Positions 12,454-59,956 of a DNA stretch of 64,000 nt are shown one piece after another (the stretch's first letter is position 1; the number at the start of each line of letters is the position of its first letter). The notes beneath the pieces were generated by a model. The model was not told where the DNA came from, searched no databases, and was given only the letters and a program-made list of their open reading frames with translations. Position numbers and translations under genes: made by a program. This DNA is from an uncultured Christensenellaceae bacterium (GTDB taxonomy: Bacteria; Bacillota; Clostridia; Christensenellales; UMGS416), in the NCBI GenBank assembly GCA_944376795.1, contig CALWDW010000012.1, positions 62,001-126,000 on the forward strand. The letters are read 5' to 3'.

Positions 12454-12921
12454 ATGAAGGATTATATTCGGCAGATGCGCGCAAAGATCGGGCACGACCC
12501 GCTGATTTTCGTAGGGGCGAGCGTGTGTCCCTACCGGGATGGAAAGATCCTGCTCCAGCGCCGCCGGGACAGCGGGCTTTGGGCCGATCACGGCGGATGC
12601 GTGGAATTCGGGGAGCGGGTGGAGGACGCGGCCCGGCGGGAGCTGCGGGAGGAGACCGGGCTCCGGGCCGGTGCGTTGGAGCTGGCCGGGGTCTTTTCCG
12701 GGGAGGAGACCCTCCACGTCTACCCTAACGGCGATCAGGCGTACATTGTGATTGTGGGCTACCTATGCGGGGACTTTGCCGGGGAGCCCCATGCCGATCC
12801 CAAGGAGGTATTGGAATTGGCGTGGTTCTCCCTGGATGCGCTGCCCCCAGAGGAGGAAATCTCTCCGCCGTCCCGCCCTGCGCTGGCGGCCTGCGTGGCC
12901 CGGCTGCGGGAAAGGGTGTAG
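12454..12921 (+). CDS. Nudix hydrolase
   Basis: This 155-residue protein has a complete Nudix box from GGCVEFGER to RRELREETGL (residues about 48-70), whose glutamates bind Mg2+ for pyrophosphate cleavage of nucleoside diphosphate derivatives. The N-terminal sequence (FVGASVCPYRDGKILLQRR) is typical of ADP-ribose or NTP-type Nudix enzymes, but the substrate cannot be fixed. GAAAGGAG lies 8 nt before the ATG. It is monocistronic, with its own promoter, divergent from the ABC-2 exporter. Confidence 0.93.
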   Translation: MKDYIRQMRAKIGHDPLIFVGASVCPYRDGKILLQRRRDSGLWADHGGCVEFGERVEDAARRELREETGLRAGALELAGVFSGEETLHVYPNGDQAYIVIVGYLCGDFAGEPHADPKEVLELAWFSLDALPPEEEISPPSRPALAACVARLRERV

Positions 12922-13108
12922 ATTTCAGCGGGGGAGGGAAACCTTGGGAAAACGGGAAAGACGGAGCGATCGTGGCTTTTTTGTACCGGCCGCTTGGGGG
13001 AACGCAAGTTTTGCGCAGGCGGGACGGAGCCCTTCGAGGCCGGGAGTCCGCTTTCTGCAATAAGGCGGAGGGAACCCTCGCCGGGCCATTTTCCCGGAGC
13101 TTTTTCCA

Positions 13109-17287: not shown

Positions 17288-17779
17288 TTATCGGCCGTTG
17301 GCCAGTTTGGCGCGAAGGGCCTGCACCGCTTGGGCGCGGTTTTTAGCCGCCGCTACCTTGAACGTGGCGTAGGATGTAAAGATCTGGATGCTGTTTTTGG
17401 CCTCCGACACGTTGGTCAGTTCGTCGGAGCGGATGGAAAACTTCTGCAGCGATCCGCTGGAGTTTTTGAGATCGTATTCGGTCACGCCTTCAATGACGCG
17501 CTCGTAGACGTCCACATACGATTTTCCCCGCAGGAAGACAACGATGACCCCATAGCCGGCATAGACGAGGAAAAACACCGGCAGGAAGAACCGCAGAAGA
17601 TTCCCTAGGAAGACATTGCCCAGCAGATCCCGCGCCATCTCGTACATGAGTTTCTCGTTTGCCATCAGGTAGAAGCTGAAAAACAGCAGGATGGCGGCAA
17701 TGACCAGAATACTTACCTTCCGTCCCAGGGTTGCCGACCGGGTGGATGCCAGGAGCTTTCCTTTGCTTGATGATTCCAT
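17288..17779 (-). CDS. Two-helix membrane protein with a probable PH-like domain
   Basis: This 163-residue protein has two hydrophobic helices at residues about 22-39 (ILVIAAILLFFSFYLM) and 61-83 (VFFLVYAGYGVIVVFL). A cytoplasmic domain follows, beginning SYVDVYERVIEGVTEYDL and ending in a basic Ala-rich helix. The arrangement resembles the bacterial PH-domain/YcxB-like proteins, but identity is low and no function can be assigned. The ATG at 17779 has AAAGGA 10 nt upstream. It diverges from an XRE regulator, and its -35 element lies inside a 38-bp palindrome, so the regulator probably controls it. Confidence 0.75.
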   Translation of the reverse strand: MESSSKGKLLASTRSATLGRKVSILVIAAILLFFSFYLMANEKLMYEMARDLLGNVFLGNLLRFFLPVFFLVYAGYGVIVVFLRGKSYVDVYERVIEGVTEYDLKNSSGSLQKFSIRSDELTNVSEAKNSIQIFTSYATFKVAAAKNRAQAVQALRAKLANGR

Positions 17780-17844
17780 GACATAGTTTTCCTTTCTGCA
17801 TTGCAAGTTTTGCAGGAGGGATCGCGATTCCTATGCTTGTACGT

Positions 17845-17873
17845 AGTATACTATATTTTCCAAATAAACGCAA
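17845..17873 (-). promoter_or_regulatory. Promoter of the membrane-protein gene
   Basis: Minus-strand TTGCGT (17873-17868), 17 bp, TATACT (17850-17845). The -35 hexamer is within the left arm of the palindrome at 17862-17899. Confidence 0.8.
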
Positions 17874-17899
17874 GTGCGTATACGCATTTGCGTTTATTT
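17862..17899. promoter_or_regulatory. 38-bp near-perfect palindrome, candidate XRE operator
   Basis: Two 19-bp arms (AAATAAACGCAAGTGCGTA and TACGCATTTGCGTTTATTT) are complementary at 18 of 19 positions with no spacer. It lies between the divergent membrane-protein and XRE genes and overlaps the -35 of the former. It ends 27 bp before the XRE start, so one bound repressor could act on both. A terminator role is unlikely because it precedes both genes. Confidence 0.75.
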
Positions 17900-21645: not shown

Positions 21646-23070
21646 ATGCGAGAATACTATATCGATTCCCTTCACGGTGACGACAGCCGGGACGGCCGCA
21701 CCCCCCAGACGGCCTGGGCCACCCTTGCCAAGGCCAATGAGACGGTCTTTGCGCCCGGAGATGCCCTGTATCTGGCCCGGGGCAGCCAATTCCACGGCTG
21801 CCTGGCGCCCAAGGGAGCGGGCGACCCCCAGTGCCCGGTGACCATTGCGCCCTATGGCGCTGGTCCGCGGCCCCAGATTATAGGCCGGGAGGAGGATAAG
21901 GCGGCGGTCTTCCTCTACAACACCCATGGCTGGACCATCCGGGGATTGGATATTTCCAACGAACACAAGGGAAGTGATCCCAACTGCTGCGGCATTCTGC
22001 TGCAGGCTGAGGACTTCGGCACCAGCCGCGGCTTCCTGGTGGAGGACAATTACGTCCACGACGTGGTTACCGGGGCGGAGCTGGCCGGCCATCGTTCGGG
22101 CGCCGGGATCCGCGTCCAGGCCGAGAGCCAGGGAACCCTAAGCCGCTTCGACGGCGTGCGCATTACGGGGAACCATCTGGTGCGGACCGATTCGGTGGGC
22201 ATTTTGGTCTGGGGCAATATTAACCGGGACCGCTGGTTTCCCTGCATCCACGTGGTTATCGACCACAACCTGCTGGAGGACCAGGGCGGCGACGCCATCC
22301 TCAACTGCGGCACCGACGGCTGCGTGATCGAGCGGAACCAGGTCTACAAGGGACGCACCCGGGCTACCATGTACTATGCCGGCATCTGGCCGGGGAACGC
22401 CGATAACACCATGATTCGCTACAACGAGGTGGCGGGCTACGTGGGGACCAAGGACGGCCAGGGCTATGACTGCGACTTCAACTGCGTGGGCACCACCCAC
22501 ATGTACAATTATAGCCACGACAACGCCGGCGGATACATGCTGATCTGCACTGCCGGGCAGAAAAACCACCTGCCCCGGGACATTGGCACCATGAACACGC
22601 TGATCCACCGGAATCTGACGGTGAACGACCTGTGCCGCACCTTCCATCCCGCCGGGCCCCTGGTGGGCACGGTGATCTCGGAGAACTGCGTCTATGTGGG
22701 CCGGGGCATCGATATCCCCTGCGTCATGGTGACGGGTTACGCCGAAAAGATGGGCGGGCCGGAGGACATCCTCATGACCCGGAATATCCTGGCCGCCCGG
22801 GGCACCCTGCGCTATGTCCGCTCGGTGGAGCGGCTGGACGACGGTACCTTCAAGTACGTGGACGATCCGGCCATTCCCTGCATGCGCTATGTGGGGAACC
22901 ACTATCTGGGCAACCATGCCGCCAAGCCGGACGATCCCATGCCTCCCGCCTTCCCCCAGGTGACCCTGGAGGATCTGGAGGCCCTGCTCCTGGATGAGAA
23001 CGGCCAGGCCAAGCCCGGGTTGGCTACGCTGGACGCCTATCTGGACTACATGGGCTGGCCCAAGGCGTAG
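21646..23070 (+). CDS. Right-handed parallel beta-helix protein
   Basis: This 474-residue protein begins REYYIDSLHGDDSRDGRTPQ, a start typical of pectate-lyase-like beta-helix proteins. It continues with many short repeats of the coil type (RGLDISNEH, ITGNHLV, IDHNLLED, IERNQVYKG, IRYNEVAGY, IHRNLTV). Members act on or bind polysaccharides such as pectin, alginate or host glycans (family knowledge); the catalytic type is not clear here. Unusually, no signal peptide is present, so it should be cytoplasmic or an exported non-classical protein. It is monocistronic, with a strong promoter and terminators downstream at 23098 and 23311. Confidence 0.9.
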   Translation: MREYYIDSLHGDDSRDGRTPQTAWATLAKANETVFAPGDALYLARGSQFHGCLAPKGAGDPQCPVTIAPYGAGPRPQIIGREEDKAAVFLYNTHGWTIRGLDISNEHKGSDPNCCGILLQAEDFGTSRGFLVEDNYVHDVVTGAELAGHRSGAGIRVQAESQGTLSRFDGVRITGNHLVRTDSVGILVWGNINRDRWFPCIHVVIDHNLLEDQGGDAILNCGTDGCVIERNQVYKGRTRATMYYAGIWPGNADNTMIRYNEVAGYVGTKDGQGYDCDFNCVGTTHMYNYSHDNAGGYMLICTAGQKNHLPRDIGTMNTLIHRNLTVNDLCRTFHPAGPLVGTVISENCVYVGRGIDIPCVMVTGYAEKMGGPEDILMTRNILAARGTLRYVRSVERLDDGTFKYVDDPAIPCMRYVGNHYLGNHAAKPDDPMPPAFPQVTLEDLEALLLDENGQAKPGLATLDAYLDYMGWPKA

Positions 23071-23097: not shown

Positions 23098-23140
23098 GCC
23101 CCTCTGGGAAGCCTGGCAGGCTTCCCAGAGGGGCTTCTTG
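23098..23140 (+). terminator. Hairpin terminator after the beta-helix gene
   Basis: A perfect 16-bp stem (23098-23113 with 23119-23134) and a 5-nt loop are followed by TTCTTG. Confidence 0.75.
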
Positions 23141-35503: not shown

Positions 35504-36802
35504 ATGAAAAAACTCATTGCCTTGGCAGCGGCCCTGCTCGTGATCCTGGCCGGCTGCACGGCGGCGCCGGTGTTCGAACCCACGGTAGCCCCCACCGAGG
35601 AGCCCGTGGCAGCCCCCACCGAAGCGCCTACAGAGGCCCCCACCGAGGAGCCCACGGAGGCCCCCGCCGAGGAGCCCACGGAGGCCCCCACCGAAGCGCC
35701 TGCGGAAACCCCTGCCGCGGAGGAGACTCCGGCGGCGCTGGAGCTCCCCAAAGAGACCGCGGCCCCCGCCAATACGGGCAGCGTGGATCTCTACAGCTTC
35801 ACCTTTACCCTGAATGGCGTGGATTACACCCTGCCCTGTGCCTATTCGGTCTTTGTGGAGAATGGATGGGCCATTGAGGACGTGGATGAGCTGGAGATGG
35901 AGGAAAGCCAGTATGCCGTAGCCAACCGGATGGAGCAGAATGGCGCGGAGGTCTACGCCGAGCTGGTGAATCTCACCGAGGATACCATCACCGGCAGCGC
36001 GGCCCAGGTGGGCGGCATCAGCATGGACCAGTACCAGGCCGAAGATGGCGCGCAGCTTGTGTTCCCCGGCGGCATCACCCTGGGAAGCACGGACGAGGCG
36101 GTGCTGGCGGCCTATGGCGCCCCCAGCAGCATCTATAATGGCAGCACCTATGATAAGTATACTTACCAGCTGGACCTCTATAGCTATGCTGAGGTTTGGG
36201 TTGACCTGGAGACCAAGCAGGTCATTGAGCTGGATATGCGCTGCTTCATGACGCCGGAGGTGCCGGTCATGCCGGAGGGCCTGGAGATTCCGGAGGAGAT
36301 CGCCTCCTACCAGGCGCCCGCCGCCATGAGCGAGGATATCACCAGCTTTGAGGTGACCTTGGACGGCGCGGTCTACAAGATCCCGGCTCCCGTGCGCGCG
36401 TTCCTGGACAATGGCTGGATTCTCCAGCAGGCGGACGACGAGATGGTGGATGACGACGATTACACCTACGGCGTGCTGCGCAAGGGCAACCAGGTGATGG
36501 ATACCGTGCTCTACAACATCACCGAGGAAGAGCAGAGCGTGTTCAACTGCGTGGTCAGCCAGGTGGCCGTGAGCGATATTGACTGTGCGGGCCTGGAGAT
36601 GATCCTTCCCGGCGGAATCAAGCGCGGGGATACCGAGGAAGCCCTCGTGGCCGCGTTGGAGGGCGTCCCTTACGAGGTGGATGACGAATCCTCCATGTTC
36701 ACCTATTACGAGATCGAGGCCGACGTCCTCCAGGGTGTTACCATCGCTGTGGATAAGGAGACCGGCCTGGTCTATCAGCTGGAAGTGGAGTTCTGGCCGT
36801 AG
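35504..36802 (+). CDS. Lipoprotein with PTE/A-rich linker and duplicated domain
   Basis: This 432-residue protein has a lipoprotein signal (MKKLIALAAALLVILAGC; Cys18 is the lipidated residue). A linker of about 60 residues made of TEAP and TEEP repeats follows. After it come two related domains of about 150 residues. They start SFTFTLNGVDYTLPCAYSVFVENGW and SFEVTLDGAVYKIPAPVRAFLDNGW, and each carries a later LVFPGGITLGST / MILPGGIKRGDT block. It is anchored outside the cell. The function is unknown; the repeats suggest a spacer through the cell wall. The family is not recognised. A strong terminator follows. Confidence 0.9.
   Translation: MKKLIALAAALLVILAGCTAAPVFEPTVAPTEEPVAAPTEAPTEAPTEEPTEAPAEEPTEAPTEAPAETPAAEETPAALELPKETAAPANTGSVDLYSFTFTLNGVDYTLPCAYSVFVENGWAIEDVDELEMEESQYAVANRMEQNGAEVYAELVNLTEDTITGSAAQVGGISMDQYQAEDGAQLVFPGGITLGSTDEAVLAAYGAPSSIYNGSTYDKYTYQLDLYSYAEVWVDLETKQVIELDMRCFMTPEVPVMPEGLEIPEEIASYQAPAAMSEDITSFEVTLDGAVYKIPAPVRAFLDNGWILQQADDEMVDDDDYTYGVLRKGNQVMDTVLYNITEEEQSVFNCVVSQVAVSDIDCAGLEMILPGGIKRGDTEEALVAALEGVPYEVDDESSMFTYYEIEADVLQGVTIAVDKETGLVYQLEVEFWP
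35575..35720 (+). repeat. Short tandem repeats encoding the TEAP/TEEP linker
   Basis: Imperfect repeats of about 12 and 24 bp, built from GAGGCCCCCACCGA and GAGGAGCCCACGGA, lie within the lipoprotein gene. Such repeats can change copy number by slippage. Confidence 0.7.
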
Positions 36803-50821: not shown

Positions 50822-51255
50822 GTCTCCTCCAATAATAGCCTCCGCAGCGCGCCGCGGAAGGCCGTGTCCTGTGCTGGGGTCCGCTTCTTGGGCCCCTTCG
50901 TTCGTCCCCCGGCCCGGCGGTAAACCTGGGCCTGGTGGCGCATGGCCAAGAGGCCGTCCATATTCTCCTCCCGATAGCGCCAGCCGTCTTGATGCAGGGG
51001 CCGGGCGCCTCGCGCCAGGGCCATGGCGGCCAGGCCATAGTCCTGGGTGACCACGATGTCTCCCGGCTGCGCCCGGTTGACCAGGGCCAGATCCACGCTG
51101 TCCGCCCCGCGATCCACCGTAATGGTCTGGGCGCCCGGCCGCTCCAGCCGGTGGGCAGTGTCGCAGAATAGGAGAATCTCGGCGCCGGCCCGGCTGCCTT
51201 CCTCCAGTAGGATGCCCACCACCGGGCAGGCGTCGGCGTCTACCAAGATGCGCAT
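50818..51255 (-). CDS. YaiI/YqxD family protein (DUF188)
   Basis: This 145-residue protein begins MRILVDADACPVV, the hallmark of the YaiI/YqxD (UPF0178) family, which has a NYN/PIN-like fold and is suspected to act on RNA. VTQDYGLAAMALARGA and the ending TAFRGALRRLLLEE are also conserved. GGAGGTCATACC precedes the ATG at 51255. It overlaps the RluA-like gene by 16 nt and the CPT-like gene by 4 nt. Confidence 0.93.
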   Translation of the reverse strand: MRILVDADACPVVGILLEEGSRAGAEILLFCDTAHRLERPGAQTITVDRGADSVDLALVNRAQPGDIVVTQDYGLAAMALARGARPLHQDGWRYREENMDGLLAMRHQAQVYRRAGGRTKGPKKRTPAQDTAFRGALRRLLLEET

Positions 51256-52163
51256 GGTATGACCTCCATGTCTCGGGTTAAGGCCTCCATGTCGGCGGGC
51301 AGGGGAACGGCAAAGGACAGCGGCCGTCCGGTGGAAAGCTGTCGGAGCCGCAGTACCGCCGCATGGAGGGCGGTGCGCGTCATGCCACCGCTGCCCTCCG
51401 TGCCGTAGAGAAAATCCCCGGCCAGAGGATGGCCCAGATAGGCCATATGCACCCGGATCTGGTGGGTGCGGCCGGTGTCCAGTACCAGGCGCAGCAGGGA
51501 AAAGGAAGCCCCCGCCGCTTCCGTGCGGTAGTGGGTAATCGCCCGCTGTCCCGCGGGATCCACCTGCCGCCGCAGCACCGAACCGGGCAGCCGGGCAATG
51601 GGAACATCCACCGTGCCCTGGGAAGGTGCGGGCCTGCCCTCTGCTACCGCCAGGTATTCCCGTACCAAAAGGCCGCTCTCCCGCTGGCGGCGCAGGTGTT
51701 CCTGCACGTAGGCACTCTTGGCCACGGCCAGCAGCCCCGAGGTGCACTTGTCGAGGCGGTTCACCGGACGGAATACCAGAGACTCCCCGCGTCGGGCAAA
51801 GTGCCACGCAGCAAAGTTGGCCAGGCTGTCCCGCAGGTGGCCGGAGGAGGGATGCACCGGTATTCCCGCCGGTTTGTTCAGTACCAGCAGGTCCTCGTCC
51901 TCGTAGACGATATCCAGGGGACCCTCCACCGGCTCTACACCGGGGGAGGTAGCTGTCGCCGGCTCCAGTAGGACTTCCAGCACTGCGCCGGCTCGGGCCC
52001 GGGCGTCAACATGCACCGGCTGGCCGTCCAGGCGTATGCCGCCGGGGTAGGTCTTGATCCGCTTGAGCAGGGTATGGGAAATGCCCAGTTCACCCCGCAG
52101 AATGGGCAAAAGGGGTATGCCCTCCTGGGCGGGGGTTAACGTGACGCGGAGAATCCGTTCGAT
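51240..52163 (-). CDS. RluA-family RNA pseudouridine synthase
   Basis: This protein of about 307 residues has an S4-like N-terminal part (HTLLKRIKTYPGGIRLDGQPV) and the RluA catalytic core with DLLVLNKPAGIPVHPS, VNRLDKCTSGLL (catalytic Asp), TGRTHQIRVHMAYLGHPLAGD. It modifies rRNA or tRNA; the target is unknown. No ATG, GTG or TTG lies near the expected N-terminus. The best start is ATC at 52163, eight bases after a perfect AAAGGAGG, giving IERILRVTLTPAQEG. It leads the four-gene operon. Confidence 0.9.
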   Translation of the reverse strand: MERILRVTLTPAQEGIPLLPILRGELGISHTLLKRIKTYPGGIRLDGQPVHVDARARAGAVLEVLLEPATATSPGVEPVEGPLDIVYEDEDLLVLNKPAGIPVHPSSGHLRDSLANFAAWHFARRGESLVFRPVNRLDKCTSGLLAVAKSAYVQEHLRRQRESGLLVREYLAVAEGRPAPSQGTVDVPIARLPGSVLRRQVDPAGQRAITHYRTEAAGASFSLLRLVLDTGRTHQIRVHMAYLGHPLAGDFLYGTEGSGGMTRTALHAAVLRLRQLSTGRPLSFAVPLPADMEALTRDMEVIPCASW

Positions 52164-52409
52164 GGCGGGAGCCTCCTTTCTTGGGTTGGGGGAATATTCG
52201 CGGCAAAACCCGCCGCATCCTGCCGCCAGTCTGTCCAGAAAATCCGACCGCAGTCTTTTTTGCGTAAACCCGGGAGAAGGGAGCTCCCGGAAGAACGCAG
52301 GGGAGCAGCTGCAAGATGCATGCAGCCGTTCCCCTGTTAACCATAAGGCAGCCTTCTTGCTGGAAAACCCACGCTCGCACAAGGCTTGCGCAGCAGCAAT
52401 TCCGTCCCG

Positions 52410-52977
52410 CACGCAGAACCCAGCGCTTGGCCCACCCTATCCTCCCCCTAAAGTTTGAGAAAGGAGGGGGTACGGGGGAGGGCCCCCTTTGGGGAAGGCG
52501 CGCTTTTCCCCGCAGGAACCCCTATATCCGCAAGGACGCCTCAAGGCTCTCTCACCCGTGTACAGGACCCGGCCGCTTGGCCCGCCCTATCCTCCCCCTA
52601 AAGTTTGAGAAAGGCGGGAGGTACGGGGGAGAGGCCCCCTTTGGGGAAAGCGCGCTTTTCCCCGCAGGAACCCGTATTTCCGCAAGGACGCCTCAAGGCT
52701 CTCTCGGCCCGCGTACAGGACCCGGCCGCTTGGCCCGCCCTATCCTTCCCCTAAAGTTTGAGAAAGGTGGGGGTACGGGGGAGGGCCCCCTTTTGCAGAA
52801 GGCGCGCTTTCCCCGCAGGAACCCGTATTTTCGCAAGGGTGCCCCCAAGGCTCTCTCGCCCGTGTACAGGACCCGGCCGCTTGGCACGTCCTATCCTCCC
52901 CCTAAAGTTTGAGAAAGGTGGGGGTGCGGGGGAGGGAAACCTTTTTCAAAAGGTTTCCCTCCCCCGGAACTTGCGCA
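52410..52977. repeat. Tandem array of about 151-bp GC-rich repeats
   Basis: The core CCTCCCCCTAAAGTTTGAGA occurs at 52441, 52591, 52744 (one base changed) and 52895, spaced 150, 153 and 151 bp. Each unit also has CGCTTGGCCC before the core, a GGGGAA...TTCCCC segment and CAAGGCTCTCTC. The array has about 3.7 units and ends in the 18-bp hairpin at 52928-52965. Frames through it are not genes. Similar core and hairpin sequences are, as I recall, dispersed intergenic repeats in gut Clostridia. Confidence 0.9.
52928..52965. terminator. Perfect 18-bp hairpin at the end of the repeat array
   Basis: GGGGGAGGGAAACCTTTT (52928-52945), 2 nt, then its exact complement (52948-52965). It lies just after the ABC gene stop (52989, minus) and could end that transcript, but it has no U-run; it may be part of the repeat family. 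Confidence 0.6.
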
Positions 52978-52988
52978 AAATACGAAGC

Positions 52989-54728
52989 CTATCCCTCGGC
53001 CTGGGCGAATTGGGCGTTGTACAGCTTGGCGTAGAAGCCGCCTCGGGCCAGCAGTTCCTCGTGCCGGCCCTGCTCCACGATGTGGCCGGCGTCCATGACC
53101 AGGATGCAGTCGGCCTCCCGGATGGTGGAGAGCCGGTGGGCCACGATGAAGGAGGTGCGGCCCTGCATCATTTTCTGGAAGGCCCGCTGGATGCGGATCT
53201 CGGTACGGGTATCGATGGAGCTGGTGGCCTCGTCCAGGATGAGCATGGCCGGGTCGGTGAGCATGACCCGGGCGATGGACAGCAGCTGCTTCTGGCCCTG
53301 GGAGATATTGCCACCCTCCTCGGCAATGACGGTATCATAGCCCTGGGGCAGCCGCTGGATGAAGCTGTGGGCATGGGCGGCCTTGGCGGCGGCGACGATC
53401 TCCTCCATGGTGGCTTCCGGCTTGCCGTAGGCGATATTGTCCCGGATGGTGCCCGCGAAGAGCCAGGTGTCCTGGAGCACCATGCCATACTGCCGGCGCA
53501 GGTTCCCTCGGGGTACCTGGCGGATCGGGATCCCGTCCACCCGGATTTCCCCGGCATCCACATCGTAGAAGCGCATCAGCAGGTTGATCAGTGTGGTCTT
53601 GCCGCAGCCGGTGGGCCCGACGATGGCAATGCGTTCGCCGGGCTGGGCCACCAGGCTCAGGTTCTGGATCAGGGGGCGCTCCGGCAGGTACGAGAAGTCC
53701 ACGTGATCTAGCTCCACACGGCCCTGGCAGTCCCGGAGGGTGTGCTGGGTGGAGTCGGGGGATTCGGCGGGCTCGTCGATGACGGCAAAGACCCGCCGCG
53801 CCGATGCAAAGGCGCTCTGCAGCTCGGTGACTACGCCGGAGATCTCGTTGAAGGGCTTGGTGTACTGGTTGGCGTAGGTGAGGAAGGCCGAGATATCCCC
53901 TACGCTGATGCGGCCCATCACCGCGCTGATGGCCCCGGTGATGCCCACCGCCGCGTAAACCAGGCCGTTGACAAAGCGGGTGCAGGGGTTGGTGATGGAG
54001 GAGTAGAATTGGGCCTTGCGTCCGCTGGTGTAGAGGCGGCCGTTGATCTCCTCAAAGGCAGCTTGGGCCCGCTGCTCGTAGCCAAAGGTTTTGACCACCT
54101 TTTGTCCGCCTACCATTTCCTCGATATAGCCCCCCAGCTCGCCCTGGATGGCAGAGGACTGCTTGAAGAAGGCGTAGGTTCTCTTGGCGATGAAGGACGC
54201 CACAAACAGGGAGACGGGGGTGAGCAGCACCACCACCAGCGTATTGCCCCAGTCCAGGGACAGCATGAAGCCCAGGGTGCCCAGGATGGTGACAATCCCA
54301 GTGAAGAGCTGGGTAAAGCCCTGGAGAAGGCCGTCGCTGATGCGCTCGATGTCATTGACCACCCGGCTGATGAGGTCGCCATGGGCGTGGCTGTCCACGT
54401 ACCGCAGGGGGACCTGGGAAAGCTTGGCAAAGACGTCTACCCGGATATCCCGTACCGTACGGTGGCTGACCACGTTGTTGCACAGGCCCAGCAGCCACTG
54501 GAACAGGGCGCTGACCCCTACGGTAATCCCCAGCTGGAGGGCGATCCGCAGGATCCCCGGGAAGTCCACCTGTCCGGGGCCCACAATCAGGTCTACGCCG
54601 CGGCCTACCAGGACCGGAGCGTAGAGGGTTAGAGAGGTGCCGATCAGGGCACTGAGCAGCGCTAGCGCCAGGTAGAGGCGGTAGGGGCGGGTATAGGACA
54701 GAATTCTCCGCAGCACGCTCTTATCCAT
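52989..54728 (-). CDS. Heterodimeric ABC exporter, consensus-site subunit
   Basis: This 579-residue half transporter has six helices, then Walker A GPTGCGKTTLINLL, signature NISQGQKQLLSIARV, and Walker B LILDEATSSID with the catalytic Glu; switch His in FIVAHRLSTIREAD. The ISQGQ signature and intact Glu mark it as one partner of a heterodimer. The upstream gene overlaps its start by 8 nt and supplies the other half. GGAGGAGG precedes the ATG. The substrate may be drugs or lipids. Confidence 0.95.
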   Translation of the reverse strand: MDKSVLRRILSYTRPYRLYLALALLSALIGTSLTLYAPVLVGRGVDLIVGPGQVDFPGILRIALQLGITVGVSALFQWLLGLCNNVVSHRTVRDIRVDVFAKLSQVPLRYVDSHAHGDLISRVVNDIERISDGLLQGFTQLFTGIVTILGTLGFMLSLDWGNTLVVVLLTPVSLFVASFIAKRTYAFFKQSSAIQGELGGYIEEMVGGQKVVKTFGYEQRAQAAFEEINGRLYTSGRKAQFYSSITNPCTRFVNGLVYAAVGITGAISAVMGRISVGDISAFLTYANQYTKPFNEISGVVTELQSAFASARRVFAVIDEPAESPDSTQHTLRDCQGRVELDHVDFSYLPERPLIQNLSLVAQPGERIAIVGPTGCGKTTLINLLMRFYDVDAGEIRVDGIPIRQVPRGNLRRQYGMVLQDTWLFAGTIRDNIAYGKPEATMEEIVAAAKAAHAHSFIQRLPQGYDTVIAEEGGNISQGQKQLLSIARVMLTDPAMLILDEATSSIDTRTEIRIQRAFQKMMQGRTSFIVAHRLSTIREADCILVMDAGHIVEQGRHEELLARGGFYAKLYNAQFAQAEG

Positions 54729-57692: not shown

Positions 57693-58802
57693 ATGCGGAT
57701 TACGCGCGTAACCCCGCTCTACAGCGGAGCCAATCTTTTTGTGCGAGTGGATACCGATGAAGGCATTGCAGGCTATGGCGAGGGTACCCTCAATACCCGG
57801 GTCAAGGCCGTGGCTGCCGTGCTGCAGGATCTGGAGCCGGTGTTGATGGGGAAGGATCCCCTGCAGACCGAGCGGCTGTGGCAGGAGATCTACCGGGGAA
57901 CCTTCTGGCGCGGGGGACCGGTGCTGCTTTCGGCCCTTTCGGCGGTGGATATGGCCCTGTGGGACATCAAAGGTAAGGTGCTCCATACGCCTGTCTATAA
58001 TCTTTTGGGCGGCCCCAGCCGGGAAAAGATCCGCATGTATGTCCATGCCAGCGGGACGAACCCGGAGGAGCTTTGCCGCAATGCCGAGGCACTCCTTGCC
58101 CAGGGCTTTACCTGCCTGCGCATTTGTCCCCATGACAATTTGGAAGCCGGACGCTATGAGCCCGGGGTGCAGGTCCGCAAGAGCGTCGCCTTCATGAAGG
58201 CGCTGCGGACGGCGGTGGGAGAGGATGCAGAGATTATCTTCGAATGCCATACCCGGCTGACCCCTGCCTGGGCTGCGGCGCTCTGCCAGGAGATTGCGCC
58301 CTACCGCCCGCTGTTTGTGGAGGACGCCCTTCGGGCCGACAGCCCCGAGAGCTACCGGACCCTCCGGGCCCGCACCGACGTTGCTCTGGGGACGGGGGAG
58401 AAGTTTGGCGGGATCTGGGACTATAAGACGGTGTTCGAGGAAGATTTGATCGATTACGCCCGCACGGATATCTGCAATTGCGGTGGGATTACGTCCTTTA
58501 TGAAGATCGCTCACTATGCCGAGAGCCATTATATCGAGATGGTCCCCCACGGGATTCCCGGGCCGGTAGGCATGATGGCGGCGCTGCACTGCGATCTGGC
58601 GGCTGCCAACTTTGCCATGCAGGAGCAGGGGGCGTTCACCGCCGGCTTTGCGGAGACCGACGTCGTGCTGCGGAACGGGTTCCTGTATCTGGGGAATGCC
58701 CCTGGCCTGGGGGTGCAGATCCATGAGGACCGGCTGGAGCCGGTAAGCCATTATGAGCATCCCCATTGGGCTCGGGAAGACGGCTCGGTGCAGGACTGGT
58801 AA
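57693..58802 (+). CDS. Enolase-superfamily sugar acid dehydratase (ManD/RspA-like), copy 1
   Basis: This 369-residue protein belongs to the mandelate racemase/muconate lactonising group. Likely Mg2+ ligands are Glu184 (IIFECHTRLTP), Glu210 (LFVEDALR) and Glu236 (GTGEKF); His186 and His286 (MVPHG) are catalytic candidates. The capping domain is at residues 1-110. The pattern is closest to D-mannonate/D-galactonate dehydratase-like and RspA proteins. The exact sugar acid is unknown. It is followed by a close paralogue at 38 bp. Confidence 0.9.
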   Translation: MRITRVTPLYSGANLFVRVDTDEGIAGYGEGTLNTRVKAVAAVLQDLEPVLMGKDPLQTERLWQEIYRGTFWRGGPVLLSALSAVDMALWDIKGKVLHTPVYNLLGGPSREKIRMYVHASGTNPEELCRNAEALLAQGFTCLRICPHDNLEAGRYEPGVQVRKSVAFMKALRTAVGEDAEIIFECHTRLTPAWAAALCQEIAPYRPLFVEDALRADSPESYRTLRARTDVALGTGEKFGGIWDYKTVFEEDLIDYARTDICNCGGITSFMKIAHYAESHYIEMVPHGIPGPVGMMAALHCDLAAANFAMQEQGAFTAGFAETDVVLRNGFLYLGNAPGLGVQIHEDRLEPVSHYEHPHWAREDGSVQDW

Positions 58803-58840
58803 ACTTGCGGCCGTTACGCCGCTGAAATAGGAGGAAATAC

Positions 58841-59956
58841 ATGAAAATCACTTCGGTCAAGCCTTTGCAGAGCGACAAGAACGTATTTGTGAAGATCACC
58901 ACCGACGAGGGAATCTTTGGCATCGGCGACGGAACCCTGCACACCCGGGCCAAGGGCGTGGTGGCCGTGCTCACCGACCTGGAGCCGGTGCTGGTGGGGA
59001 AGGATCCCATGCAGACCGAGCGGCTGTGGCAGGAGATCTACCGGGGGACCTTCTGGCGCGGCGGCCCCATTCTGATGGCGGCCTTGTCGGCGGTGGACAT
59101 TGCCTTGTGGGATATCAAGGGCAAGGCGCTCAATACACCCGTCTATAATCTTTTGGGCGGCCCCAGCCGGGAAAAGATCCGTATGTATACCCATTGCAAT
59201 GGAAAGACCCCGGAGGAGCTTTGCCGCAATGCGGAGGCGCTGCTCAAGGAAGGCTATACCTGCCTGCGCATCTGCCCCTATGACAATCTCAAGGACGGCT
59301 TTTTTGAGCCGGGGATCCAGGTGCGGAAGGTTGCGGCATATATGAAGGCTCTGCGCGACTGTGTGGGGGAGGATGTGGAGATCATTCTGGAGTGTCATAC
59401 CCGTCTGACTCCCTCCTGGGCCATCAAGCTCTGCGAGAGCGTAGCGCCCTATCATCCGCTCTTTGTGGAAGATGCGCTGCGTGCCGATAGCCCGGAAAGC
59501 TACCGTGTGCTCCGCGCCCATACCAACCTGGCCTTGGGAACCGGGGAAAAGTTCGGAGCCCCCTGGGACTACAAGACGGTGTTTGAGGAGGACCTGATCG
59601 ACTACTGCCGCACCGATATCTGCAATGGAGGAGGCATCACCTCCTTTATGAAGATCGCCCACTACGCCGAGAGCCACTACATTGAGATGGTACCCCACGG
59701 ACTGCCCAGTCCCATCGGGCAGATGGCCGCCCTCCACTGCGATTTGGCCGTTACCAACTTTGCTCTCCAGGAACGGGGGCTGCACCGCCCGGACATTCCG
59801 TTCATTCAGGCGGATATGACGTTTAAGGACGGCTTTATTTACCTGGGCAGCGAGCCGGGTATCGGCATTCATCTGGATGAAAAAGCGCTGGATCCTATCC
59901 GGCACTATGAACATCCCCACTGGGTGCGGGAGGACGGCTCGGTGCAGGATTGGTAG
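58841..59956 (+). CDS. Enolase-superfamily sugar acid dehydratase (ManD/RspA-like), copy 2
   Basis: This 371-residue protein is roughly two-thirds or more identical by eye to the preceding protein and ends in the same EDGSVQDW. Metal ligands (ILECHTRLTP, LFVEDALR, GTGEKF) and MVPHG are conserved. Differences cluster near the active site: MYTHCNGKTPEE instead of MYVHASGTNPEE, and CNGGGIT instead of CNCGGIT, so substrate or stereochemistry may differ. A run of 41 identical bases (57993-58033 and 59141-59181) suggests recent duplication or gene conversion. AGGAGGAAATAC precedes the ATG. Confidence 0.9.
   Translation: MKITSVKPLQSDKNVFVKITTDEGIFGIGDGTLHTRAKGVVAVLTDLEPVLVGKDPMQTERLWQEIYRGTFWRGGPILMAALSAVDIALWDIKGKALNTPVYNLLGGPSREKIRMYTHCNGKTPEELCRNAEALLKEGYTCLRICPYDNLKDGFFEPGIQVRKVAAYMKALRDCVGEDVEIILECHTRLTPSWAIKLCESVAPYHPLFVEDALRADSPESYRVLRAHTNLALGTGEKFGAPWDYKTVFEEDLIDYCRTDICNGGGITSFMKIAHYAESHYIEMVPHGLPSPIGQMAALHCDLAVTNFALQERGLHRPDIPFIQADMTFKDGFIYLGSEPGIGIHLDEKALDPIRHYEHPHWVREDGSVQDW

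What the first reader, a model, noticed from the sequence alone, without database searches (positions are those of the whole stretch)
52410..52977. Tandem array of about 151-bp repeats ending in a perfect 18-bp hairpin
Four cores (52441, 52591, 52744, 52895) with near-constant spacing are rich in short inverted repeats, lie between two minus-strand operons and encode nothing. Within-array divergence is low, suggesting recent amplification. It could be a dispersed intergenic element, a structured RNA or a protein-binding array.
Basis: seen in the sequence. Interest (0 to 1): 0.6.

Follow-up and report, generated by a model that had tools for sequence, protein, structure and literature searches.

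The report
Dispersed triple-helix-type repeat between genes
The four-copy array is a local tandem expansion of a short palindromic DNA repeat that occurs at least 118 times in this gut-type bacterium, almost always just after the ends of genes; across about 16 related genomes the repeat's unpaired leader changes together with its hairpin as the third strand of a triple helix would, so it gives an unusually testable case for triple-stranded DNA in living bacteria.

Summary
The array is real: four units, spacing 150/153/151, the last ending in a perfect hairpin; only that copy still folds. It is the local form of a dispersed intergenic repeat. The genome holds at least 118 copies of its core (module A), usually in ordered mosaics [C or D]-B-A, none inside genes, mostly between convergent genes, with A about 37 nt from a stop codon. 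B is an intrinsic terminator reading from the A side. The window's 75-nt spacer is unique to this locus, so the array arose by local tandem duplication of A plus flank. A-like modules recur patchily in other Clostridia with changed but still complementary arms (14 of 15 pairs compensated). The unpaired leader covaries with its own hairpin by the base-triplet code of an intrastrand triple helix (best of 512 codes; own versus foreign arms p = 5e-5, the permutation floor). The closest known kind is the PIT/BoxC intrastrand-triplex repeat; this is a new variant with a strand switch, outside the published detection rules. It is not a REP/RAYT element: no Y1 transposase, no GTAG/CGTC tag. Formation of the triplex in cells and any host function remain unshown. 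Arrays probably reflect replication slippage at this block.

The parts
52300..52334 (-). Module B hairpin (terminator-type) of the composite repeat, here without its T-run
   Evidence: 86% match to the B consensus; folds at -28.2 kcal/mol, z -6.1; flank shows no T-run
52433..52518 (+). Unit 1: A leader plus degenerate palindrome
   Evidence: R1 match 56.3 bits; hairpin no better than shuffles
52511..52582 (.). Locus-specific spacer 1
   Evidence: matches only the other spacers of this array among 40 own-genome loci
52583..52670 (+). Unit 2: A leader plus degenerate palindrome
   Evidence: R1 47.5 bits
52663..52735 (.). Locus-specific spacer 2
   Evidence: 93% to spacer 1
52736..52821 (+). Unit 3: A leader plus degenerate palindrome
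   Evidence: R1 62.2 bits
52813..52886 (.). Locus-specific spacer 3
   Evidence: 89-90% to spacers 1 and 2
52887..52972 (+). Unit 4: the complete module A
   Evidence: R1 97.7 bits, E 1e-21; one of at least 118 copies in the genome
52901..52926 (+). Leader, the proposed third strand of the triple helix
   Evidence: triplet-code score 12 against its own 5' arm
52927..52966 (+). Perfect palindrome of module A
   Evidence: I2
52989..54728 (-). Flanking gene: ABC exporter half-transporter; its stop codon lies 23 nt from the palindrome
51240..52160 (-). Flanking gene: RluA-type pseudouridine synthase (start approximate; the longest ORF runs to 52412)
   Evidence: function read from the translation, no profile search was run
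12928..12955 (+). Truncated remnant of the module A palindrome, about 8 nt after the stop codon of the gene at 12454-12921, between convergent genes

Best explanation
The array is a locally expanded copy of a dispersed, non-coding composite repeat. The core (module A) is a leader of about 26 nt followed by a 40-nt perfect palindrome. On the strand read leader-first, the palindrome forms a hairpin and the leader folds back along it as a third strand: G.GC and A.AT triplets antiparallel to the G/A-rich 5' arm, then, after the purines switch to the other arm, G.GC, T.AT and C+.GC triplets. This is an intrastrand triple helix of the PIT/BoxC kind, extended by a strand switch. Such a structure is expected to stall DNA polymerase when the strand is single; restart upstream duplicates the flank plus leader, which gives arrays such as this one with locus-specific spacers and a complete palindrome in the last copy. 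In most composite copies the accompanying B hairpin is an intrinsic terminator reading from the gene on the A side, so the mosaics end transcription between genes. SHOWN by computation: copy number, order of modules, location, terminator direction, arm compensation, leader-hairpin covariation by triplet code. INFERRED: that the triplex forms in cells, that stalling causes the arrays, that termination matters to the host. UNKNOWN: what spreads the repeat; no RAYT was found.
For: At least 118 cores and about 101 B hairpins in the genome, backward-pattern control 0. Recurrent order [C or D]-B-A in 80 loci. No block inside a gene; the A-side gene faces the element with its stop codon in 53 of 63 blocks (p 3e-8), median 37 nt; convergent neighbours 25 of 42 versus 9 of 53 gene pairs in the window (p 3e-5). 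T-run of at least 4 on the far side of B in 72 of 86, against 11 of 86 on the A side (p 7e-22). Cross-genome hairpin: 14 of 15 pairs with compensatory change. Leader versus hairpin: the triplet code is the best of 512 codes (10.89, next 9.89; Watson-Crick 126th); with 21 element types own arm 12.24 versus foreign arms 9.34 versus shuffled leader 7.08, p 5e-5, and p 5e-5 again after removing the basal G-run; inside this genome A leaders fit A arms (12.5) better than C arms (8.9), and C leaders fit C arms (10.4) better than A arms (8.3). Spacer unique to the locus; similar arrays with other spacers at other loci (L257, L268, L056). 53 of 118 copies lie within 600 nt of a contig end, 3.3 expected. 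Intrastrand-triplex repeats are reported to block polymerase in vitro and to mark unstable loci (PMC4666352).
Against: No biophysics or RNA-seq. For the E. coli analogue the triplex forms as an isolated strand in vitro, but in vivo footprinting did not support stable formation, and no promoter or terminator activity was found (PMC4666352). The same paper states that purine-motif triplexes do not form in RNA. The strand-switch part needs less stable triplets, some protonated. Only 7 of 21 leaders have their own arm as best or tied best, and the 21 types are not phylogenetically independent. In co-directional gene pairs the elements show no orientation preference (8 versus 7), which argues against termination being the selected function. 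No empty site or second strain was available, so slippage and dispersal are inferred. The window copy has lost its terminator features.
Confidence: 0.66

Rival explanations
1. An RNA element: modules A and B act in the mRNA 3' end as terminator and decay barrier; the leader is conserved for an RNA or RNA-protein reason, and the triplex match is a by-product.
For: Location downstream of stop codons; B is a directional intrinsic terminator; very stable hairpins.
Against: Leader-hairpin covariation follows triplet rules best and Watson-Crick poorly; purine-motif triplexes are reported not to form in RNA (PMC4666352); A has no T-run; no orientation preference in co-directional pairs; in other genomes A often lies before start codons.
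Confidence: 0.15
2. A protein-binding array (nucleoid protein, gyrase or a partition-type factor) with near-constant spacing.
For: Conserved leader AAAGTTTTTGAAAGG and regular spacing inside some arrays.
Against: Spacing differs among arrays (133-153, 204, 240, 320-360) and the conserved leader covaries with the hairpin, which a fixed protein site would not need.
Confidence: 0.1
3. REP/REPIN elements moved by a RAYT (Y1 HUH transposase).
For: High copy, intergenic, palindromic, inverted pairs and mosaics as in BIMEs and REPINs.
Against: No Y1_Tnp candidate at all in the own genome (95% complete) and no match in G536 and G836, which carry many copies, although the family is found in 74 of 200 genomes of the order; no GTAG or CGTC tag.
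Confidence: 0.04
4. A MITE mobilised by a DDE transposase whose inverted ends are modules A and C.
For: C-B-A is an overall inverted repeat of about 240 bp; G536 has A-spacer-A inverted pairs; patchy distribution.
Against: No target duplication seen by eye in the flanks; many truncated and solitary A copies; no transposase was linked to it, though DDE families were not searched.
Confidence: 0.1
5. Assembly artefact.
For: Repeats of this family do break the assembly.
Against: The four units differ from one another at 7-28% of positions and have a unique spacer; analogous arrays occur elsewhere.
Confidence: 0.02

Closest known systems
Intrastrand-triplex repeats: PIT elements / BoxC / TM_ECO (Hoyne and Maher 2000; Holder et al. 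2015, PMC4666352)
   Same: Short, GC-rich, intergenic, dispersed repeats in which three segments of one strand fit triplet rules; two subtypes paired in inverted orientation (type A with type B in E. coli; modules A and C here); very uneven copy number between relatives; linked to unstable loci.
   Different: Class I order (third strand at the 5' end) instead of class II; continues past a purine strand switch to the loop; the part beyond the homopurine block is too long for the ITxF loop rule; Clostridia instead of Proteobacteria; built into mosaics with an intrinsic terminator; found here mostly downstream of genes.
REP / BIME / REPIN elements (PMC3733652, PMC2817692, PMC3116915)
   Same: High-copy intergenic palindromes, inverted pairs and mosaics, mostly between convergent or co-directional genes.
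   Different: No GTAG or CGTC tag, no RAYT found in the genome, long covarying leader, larger modules (up to 183 nt).
Intrinsic (Rho-independent) terminators
   Same: Module B: GC-rich hairpin followed by a T-run in one direction.
   Different: Dispersed as part of a repeat in about 100 similar copies; decayed in the window.
Palindromic candidate structured RNAs of human microbiomes (PMC8040213)
   Same: Computationally found palindromes, most predicted to be terminators.
   Different: No match to this family could be established; the examples named there are mostly from Bacteroidetes.

Membership tests
Intrastrand-triplex (PIT/BoxC/TM) repeats | Three segments of one strand compatible with A(T).AT / G.GC triplets, third strand antiparallel to the purine strand | tested here: met
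   Basal G/A block fits; triplet score own 12.24 versus shuffled 7.08; perfect runs of 16, 14, 13 and 12 triplets in several genomes
Intrastrand-triplex (PIT/BoxC/TM) repeats | ITxF rule: stems of 6-15 nt, both loops 1-6 nt, stems within one triplex class | tested here: not met
   Read from the consensus: loop 1 is about 3 nt, but after the homopurine block the rest of the hairpin is 14 nt or more; the fit continues only by a strand switch (rules)
Intrastrand-triplex (PIT/BoxC/TM) repeats | Intergenic, multi-copy, overrepresented | tested here: met
   118 copies, 0 of 81 blocks inside genes
Intrastrand-triplex (PIT/BoxC/TM) repeats | Triplex forms (CD, NMR) | not testable with these tools
   Needs oligonucleotide biophysics
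Intrastrand-triplex (PIT/BoxC/TM) repeats | Loci more rearranged among close strains | not testable with these tools
   No second strain or congener held; tandem arrays and contig breaks are only indirect
REP / REPIN (RAYT-dependent) | GTAG or CGTC tag at one end of the palindrome | tested here: not met
   Consensus of 43 and of 38 copies has the leader AAAGTTTT..GGGGG and no such tag
REP / REPIN (RAYT-dependent) | RAYT (Y1_Tnp, PF01797) in the genome | tested here: not met
   0 candidates in the own genome; no match in G536 and G836 either
BIME-like mosaic (architecture only) | Alternating inverted palindromes in ordered intergenic mosaics | tested here: met
   [C or D]-B-A units, C inverted relative to A
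Intrinsic terminator (module B) | GC hairpin followed by a T-run | tested here: met
   72 of 86 copies with at least 4 T on the far side, 11 of 86 on the A side; not met for the window copy
MITE | Terminal inverted repeats plus target-site duplication | tested here: inconclusive
   Overall inverted repeat present; no duplication visible by eye, no empty site available
Rfam families | Match to any curated RNA family | tested here: not met
   0 matches at gathering thresholds over the window

The most novel reading that the evidence does not exclude
A natural alternate-strand intrastrand triple helix, with a continuous third strand that switches from the purine motif to the pyrimidine motif, is under selection in many Clostridia: leader, 5' arm and 3' arm covary together across genomes. 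This would be comparative evidence that such triplexes form in living bacteria, and the repeat would be a new class beyond the four published ones.
Probability: 0.45. Interest if true: 0.85.

Novelty: new variant of a known kind. Interest (0 to 1): 0.68.

Why it matters
Whether intrastrand DNA triplexes form and matter in bacterial cells is an open question: the E. coli motif forms one in vitro, but in vivo footprinting was negative. A family whose three strands change together across genomes is the kind of comparative evidence that has been missing, and it makes the question testable by mutations that break triplets but not duplex pairs. It would also explain a class of tandem arrays and assembly breaks in gut-bacterial genomes, and it adds a REP-like high-copy repeat without a RAYT.

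Tried and rejected
RAYT/REP membership: rejected. Rfam: no match. G-quadruplex: a G3+N1-7 motif is present in only 34 of 65 A copies and would not explain the covarying T-run. An alternative hairpin between leader and 5' arm: Watson-Crick code only 126th of 512, and own versus foreign arms barely differ. Presence in phages or plasmids: composite patterns 0 matches; the leader alone gave 11 viral contigs, none followed by the hairpin; plasmids no match. Published sequence fragments: none relevant. Empty-site comparison: not possible, no close relative held.

Full report
OBSERVATION. The array is present at the stated place. The repeat finder gives four copies with start-to-start distances 150, 153 and 151, and Tandem Repeats Finder gives 52424-52936, period 151, 91% matches. 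The last copy ends in a perfect palindrome at 52927-52966. Copies 1-3 keep the leader and most of the 5' arm, but their 3' arms have decayed: they fold no better than shuffled sequence (z -0.10 to -0.42), whereas copy 4 has z -6.5. The array lies between the stop codon of a minus-strand ABC exporter (23 nt away) and an RluA-like gene on the same strand.

GENOME-WIDE. The window is part of a 2.68-Mb, 62-contig genome. A search with the array DNA returned 142 matching places, nearly all to the 3' core. A covariance model of the core (R1, from 43 aligned copies) finds 118 full-length copies of at least 69 bits (counted). These numbers are lower bounds: 53 of the 118 lie within 600 nt of a contig end where 3.3 are expected, so the repeat breaks the assembly. 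A second hairpin, B, occurs about 101 times, while the same pattern read backwards occurs 0 times.

ANATOMY. Four modules recur in a preferred order. A is a leader of about 26-34 nt plus the 40-nt palindrome CGGGGGAGGGAAACCTTTTGCAAAAGGTTTCCCTCCCCCG. C is a diverged relative of A in opposite orientation with palindrome TTGGGGGAGAGGGCCCTTTTGCAAAAGGGCCCTCTCCCCCAA. B is the hairpin GGGGAACGGCTGCA..TGCAGCCGTTCCCC. D is a 183-nt module. Units read [C or D]-B-A, repeated head to tail with periods of about 240 (C units) or 320-360 (D units). The window array is an atypical form: a B hairpin at 52300-52334, then four A units without B, C or D between them.

LOCATION. In 81 blocks from 80 loci (138 A modules) none lies inside a called gene. 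The gene on the A side has its stop codon facing the element in 53 of 63 blocks, median distance 37 nt; when both neighbours are known, 25 are convergent, 15 co-directional and 2 divergent, against 9, 35 and 9 among neighbouring genes of the window (p 3e-5 for convergent). In co-directional pairs orientation is even (8 versus 7). My gene caller is a codon-usage script, so single calls may be wrong. B carries a T-run of at least 4 on the side away from A in 72 of 86 copies and on the A side in 11 of 86 (p 7e-22), so it is an intrinsic terminator for transcripts arriving from the A side. The B copy in the window lacks the T-run, and no B-type terminator is predicted there.

HOW THE ARRAY AROSE. 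The 75-nt spacers match each other (89-93%) and nothing else among 40 loci from this genome; the whole-genome search also hit only the A-like stretches. The repeated unit is therefore A plus local flank, duplicated in place. Other loci show the same process with their own spacers: L257 (138, 133, 136), L268 (about 147), L056. In L257, as in the window, the upstream copies are degenerate and the last is complete. That is what stalling at the palindrome and restart upstream would leave; this step is inferred.

RELATIVES. DNA-level copies are confined to this genome; seven other genomes of its family have none. With the covariance models, A-like modules appear in 14 of 200 genomes of the order (including this one), in five further genomes of a 291-genome class sample, and in one further genome of a 398-genome phylum sample: patchy, often with many copies where present. 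In G047, G090 and G072 A mostly stands alone; in G536 it forms inverted pairs around a palindromic centre. The nearest relatives by the ABC exporter are Christensenella-like and other Clostridia. Across 38 modules the hairpin keeps pairing while its sequence changes: 14 of 15 pairs show two-sided compensatory change.

THE LEADER. The leader is not paired in the consensus hairpin, yet it is conserved. It proved to be a mirror image of its own 5' arm. In an unbiased test over all 256 base-to-base codes in both orientations, the best relation is antiparallel G->G, A->A, C->G, T->T (score 10.89; next 9.89; plain mirror 8.89; Watson-Crick rank 126). This is the code of a third strand on the hairpin duplex: G.GC and A.AT antiparallel to the purines of the 5' arm, then, where the purines are on the 3' arm, G.GC, T.AT and sometimes C+.GC parallel to them. 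With 21 element types scored by legal triplets, the leader fits its own arm (12.24) better than arms of other types (9.34) and better than a shuffled leader does (7.08), p 5e-5, the floor of the permutation test; L091 fits 16 of 16, L084 14 of 14, L103 13 of 13 and L090 12 of 12. The result holds without the basal G-run (9.10 versus 7.15, p 5e-5). Inside this genome the paralogues A and C give an independent swap test: A leaders score 12.5 on A arms and 8.9 on C arms; C leaders 10.4 on C arms and 8.3 on A arms. With C positions scored neutrally the leader opposite C is G in 27 and C in 8 of 51. Caveats: alignment maximises identity, the types share ancestry, and only 7 of 21 leaders rank their own arm first or tied first.

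COMPARISON. Intrastrand-triplex repeats are known in bacteria as PIT elements, BoxC or TM_ECO (PMC4666352, read). They are intergenic, multi-copy, uneven among relatives, paired as inverted type A plus type B, block polymerase in vitro, mark unstable loci, and showed no promoter or terminator activity; in vivo footprinting did not support stable triplex formation. The present element works like these and has the class I order, but fails the published detection rule because its homopurine block ends well before the loop and the fit continues across a strand switch. A triplex using alternating purine and pyrimidine tracts has been built in vitro with a peptide's help, with a polarity assignment differing from the one proposed here (PMC3660596). 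REP elements share location and mosaic architecture (PMC3733652), but the GTAG/CGTC tag and the RAYT are absent: no Y1_Tnp candidate in this genome and no match in G536 and G836, while 74 of 200 genomes of the order have one.

VERDICT. Most likely it is a new variant of intrastrand-triplex repeat, embedded in BIME-like mosaics with intrinsic terminators, and this array is a local slippage product. The triplex in vivo, the cause of the arrays and the means of dispersal remain to be shown.

Noticed in passing
window 12921-12955: Truncated module A palindrome (GCGGGGGAGGGAAACCTT) about 8 nt after a stop codon, between convergent genes: a second, decayed copy in the window.
   Followed up: partly
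window 35579-35712: Tandem repeat of 12/24/48 bp inside the gene at 35504-36802, with Pro/Thr/Glu-rich coding content, probably a flexible linker of a surface protein.
   Followed up: no
window 23098-23134: Perfect 18-bp hairpin GCCCCTCTGGGAAGCCTGGCAGGCTTCCCAGAGGGGC just after the gene ending at 23070; probably an ordinary terminator.
   Followed up: no
window 17862-17899: Long palindrome AAATAAACGCAAGTGCGTATACGCATTTGCGTTTATTT in an intergenic gap next to the gene at 17288-17806; could be an operator or bidirectional terminator.
   Followed up: no
window 57693-59956: Two adjacent, clearly similar enolase-superfamily dehydratase-like genes on the plus strand, probably a tandem duplication.
   Followed up: no
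L192 1660-1740: In genome G536 an A-like hairpin lies directly before a ribosome-binding site and ATG, so in other hosts the element can sit in a 5' leader; in foreign genomes the palindrome lies close to a gene edge, start or stop.
   Followed up: partly
L221 around 1630-1750 (G047): Several short direct repeats of the 3' arm plus flank (AAAAAGTTTTCCCCC..) after a complete element, another sign of slippage at the palindrome.
   Followed up: no
L088 1501-2848 and L232 1500-2950: In G122 and G072 A-like elements flank a small operon that begins with a gene coding for MMNKGYLTCGR.., suggesting that the element travels with a mobile element in those genomes.
   Followed up: no
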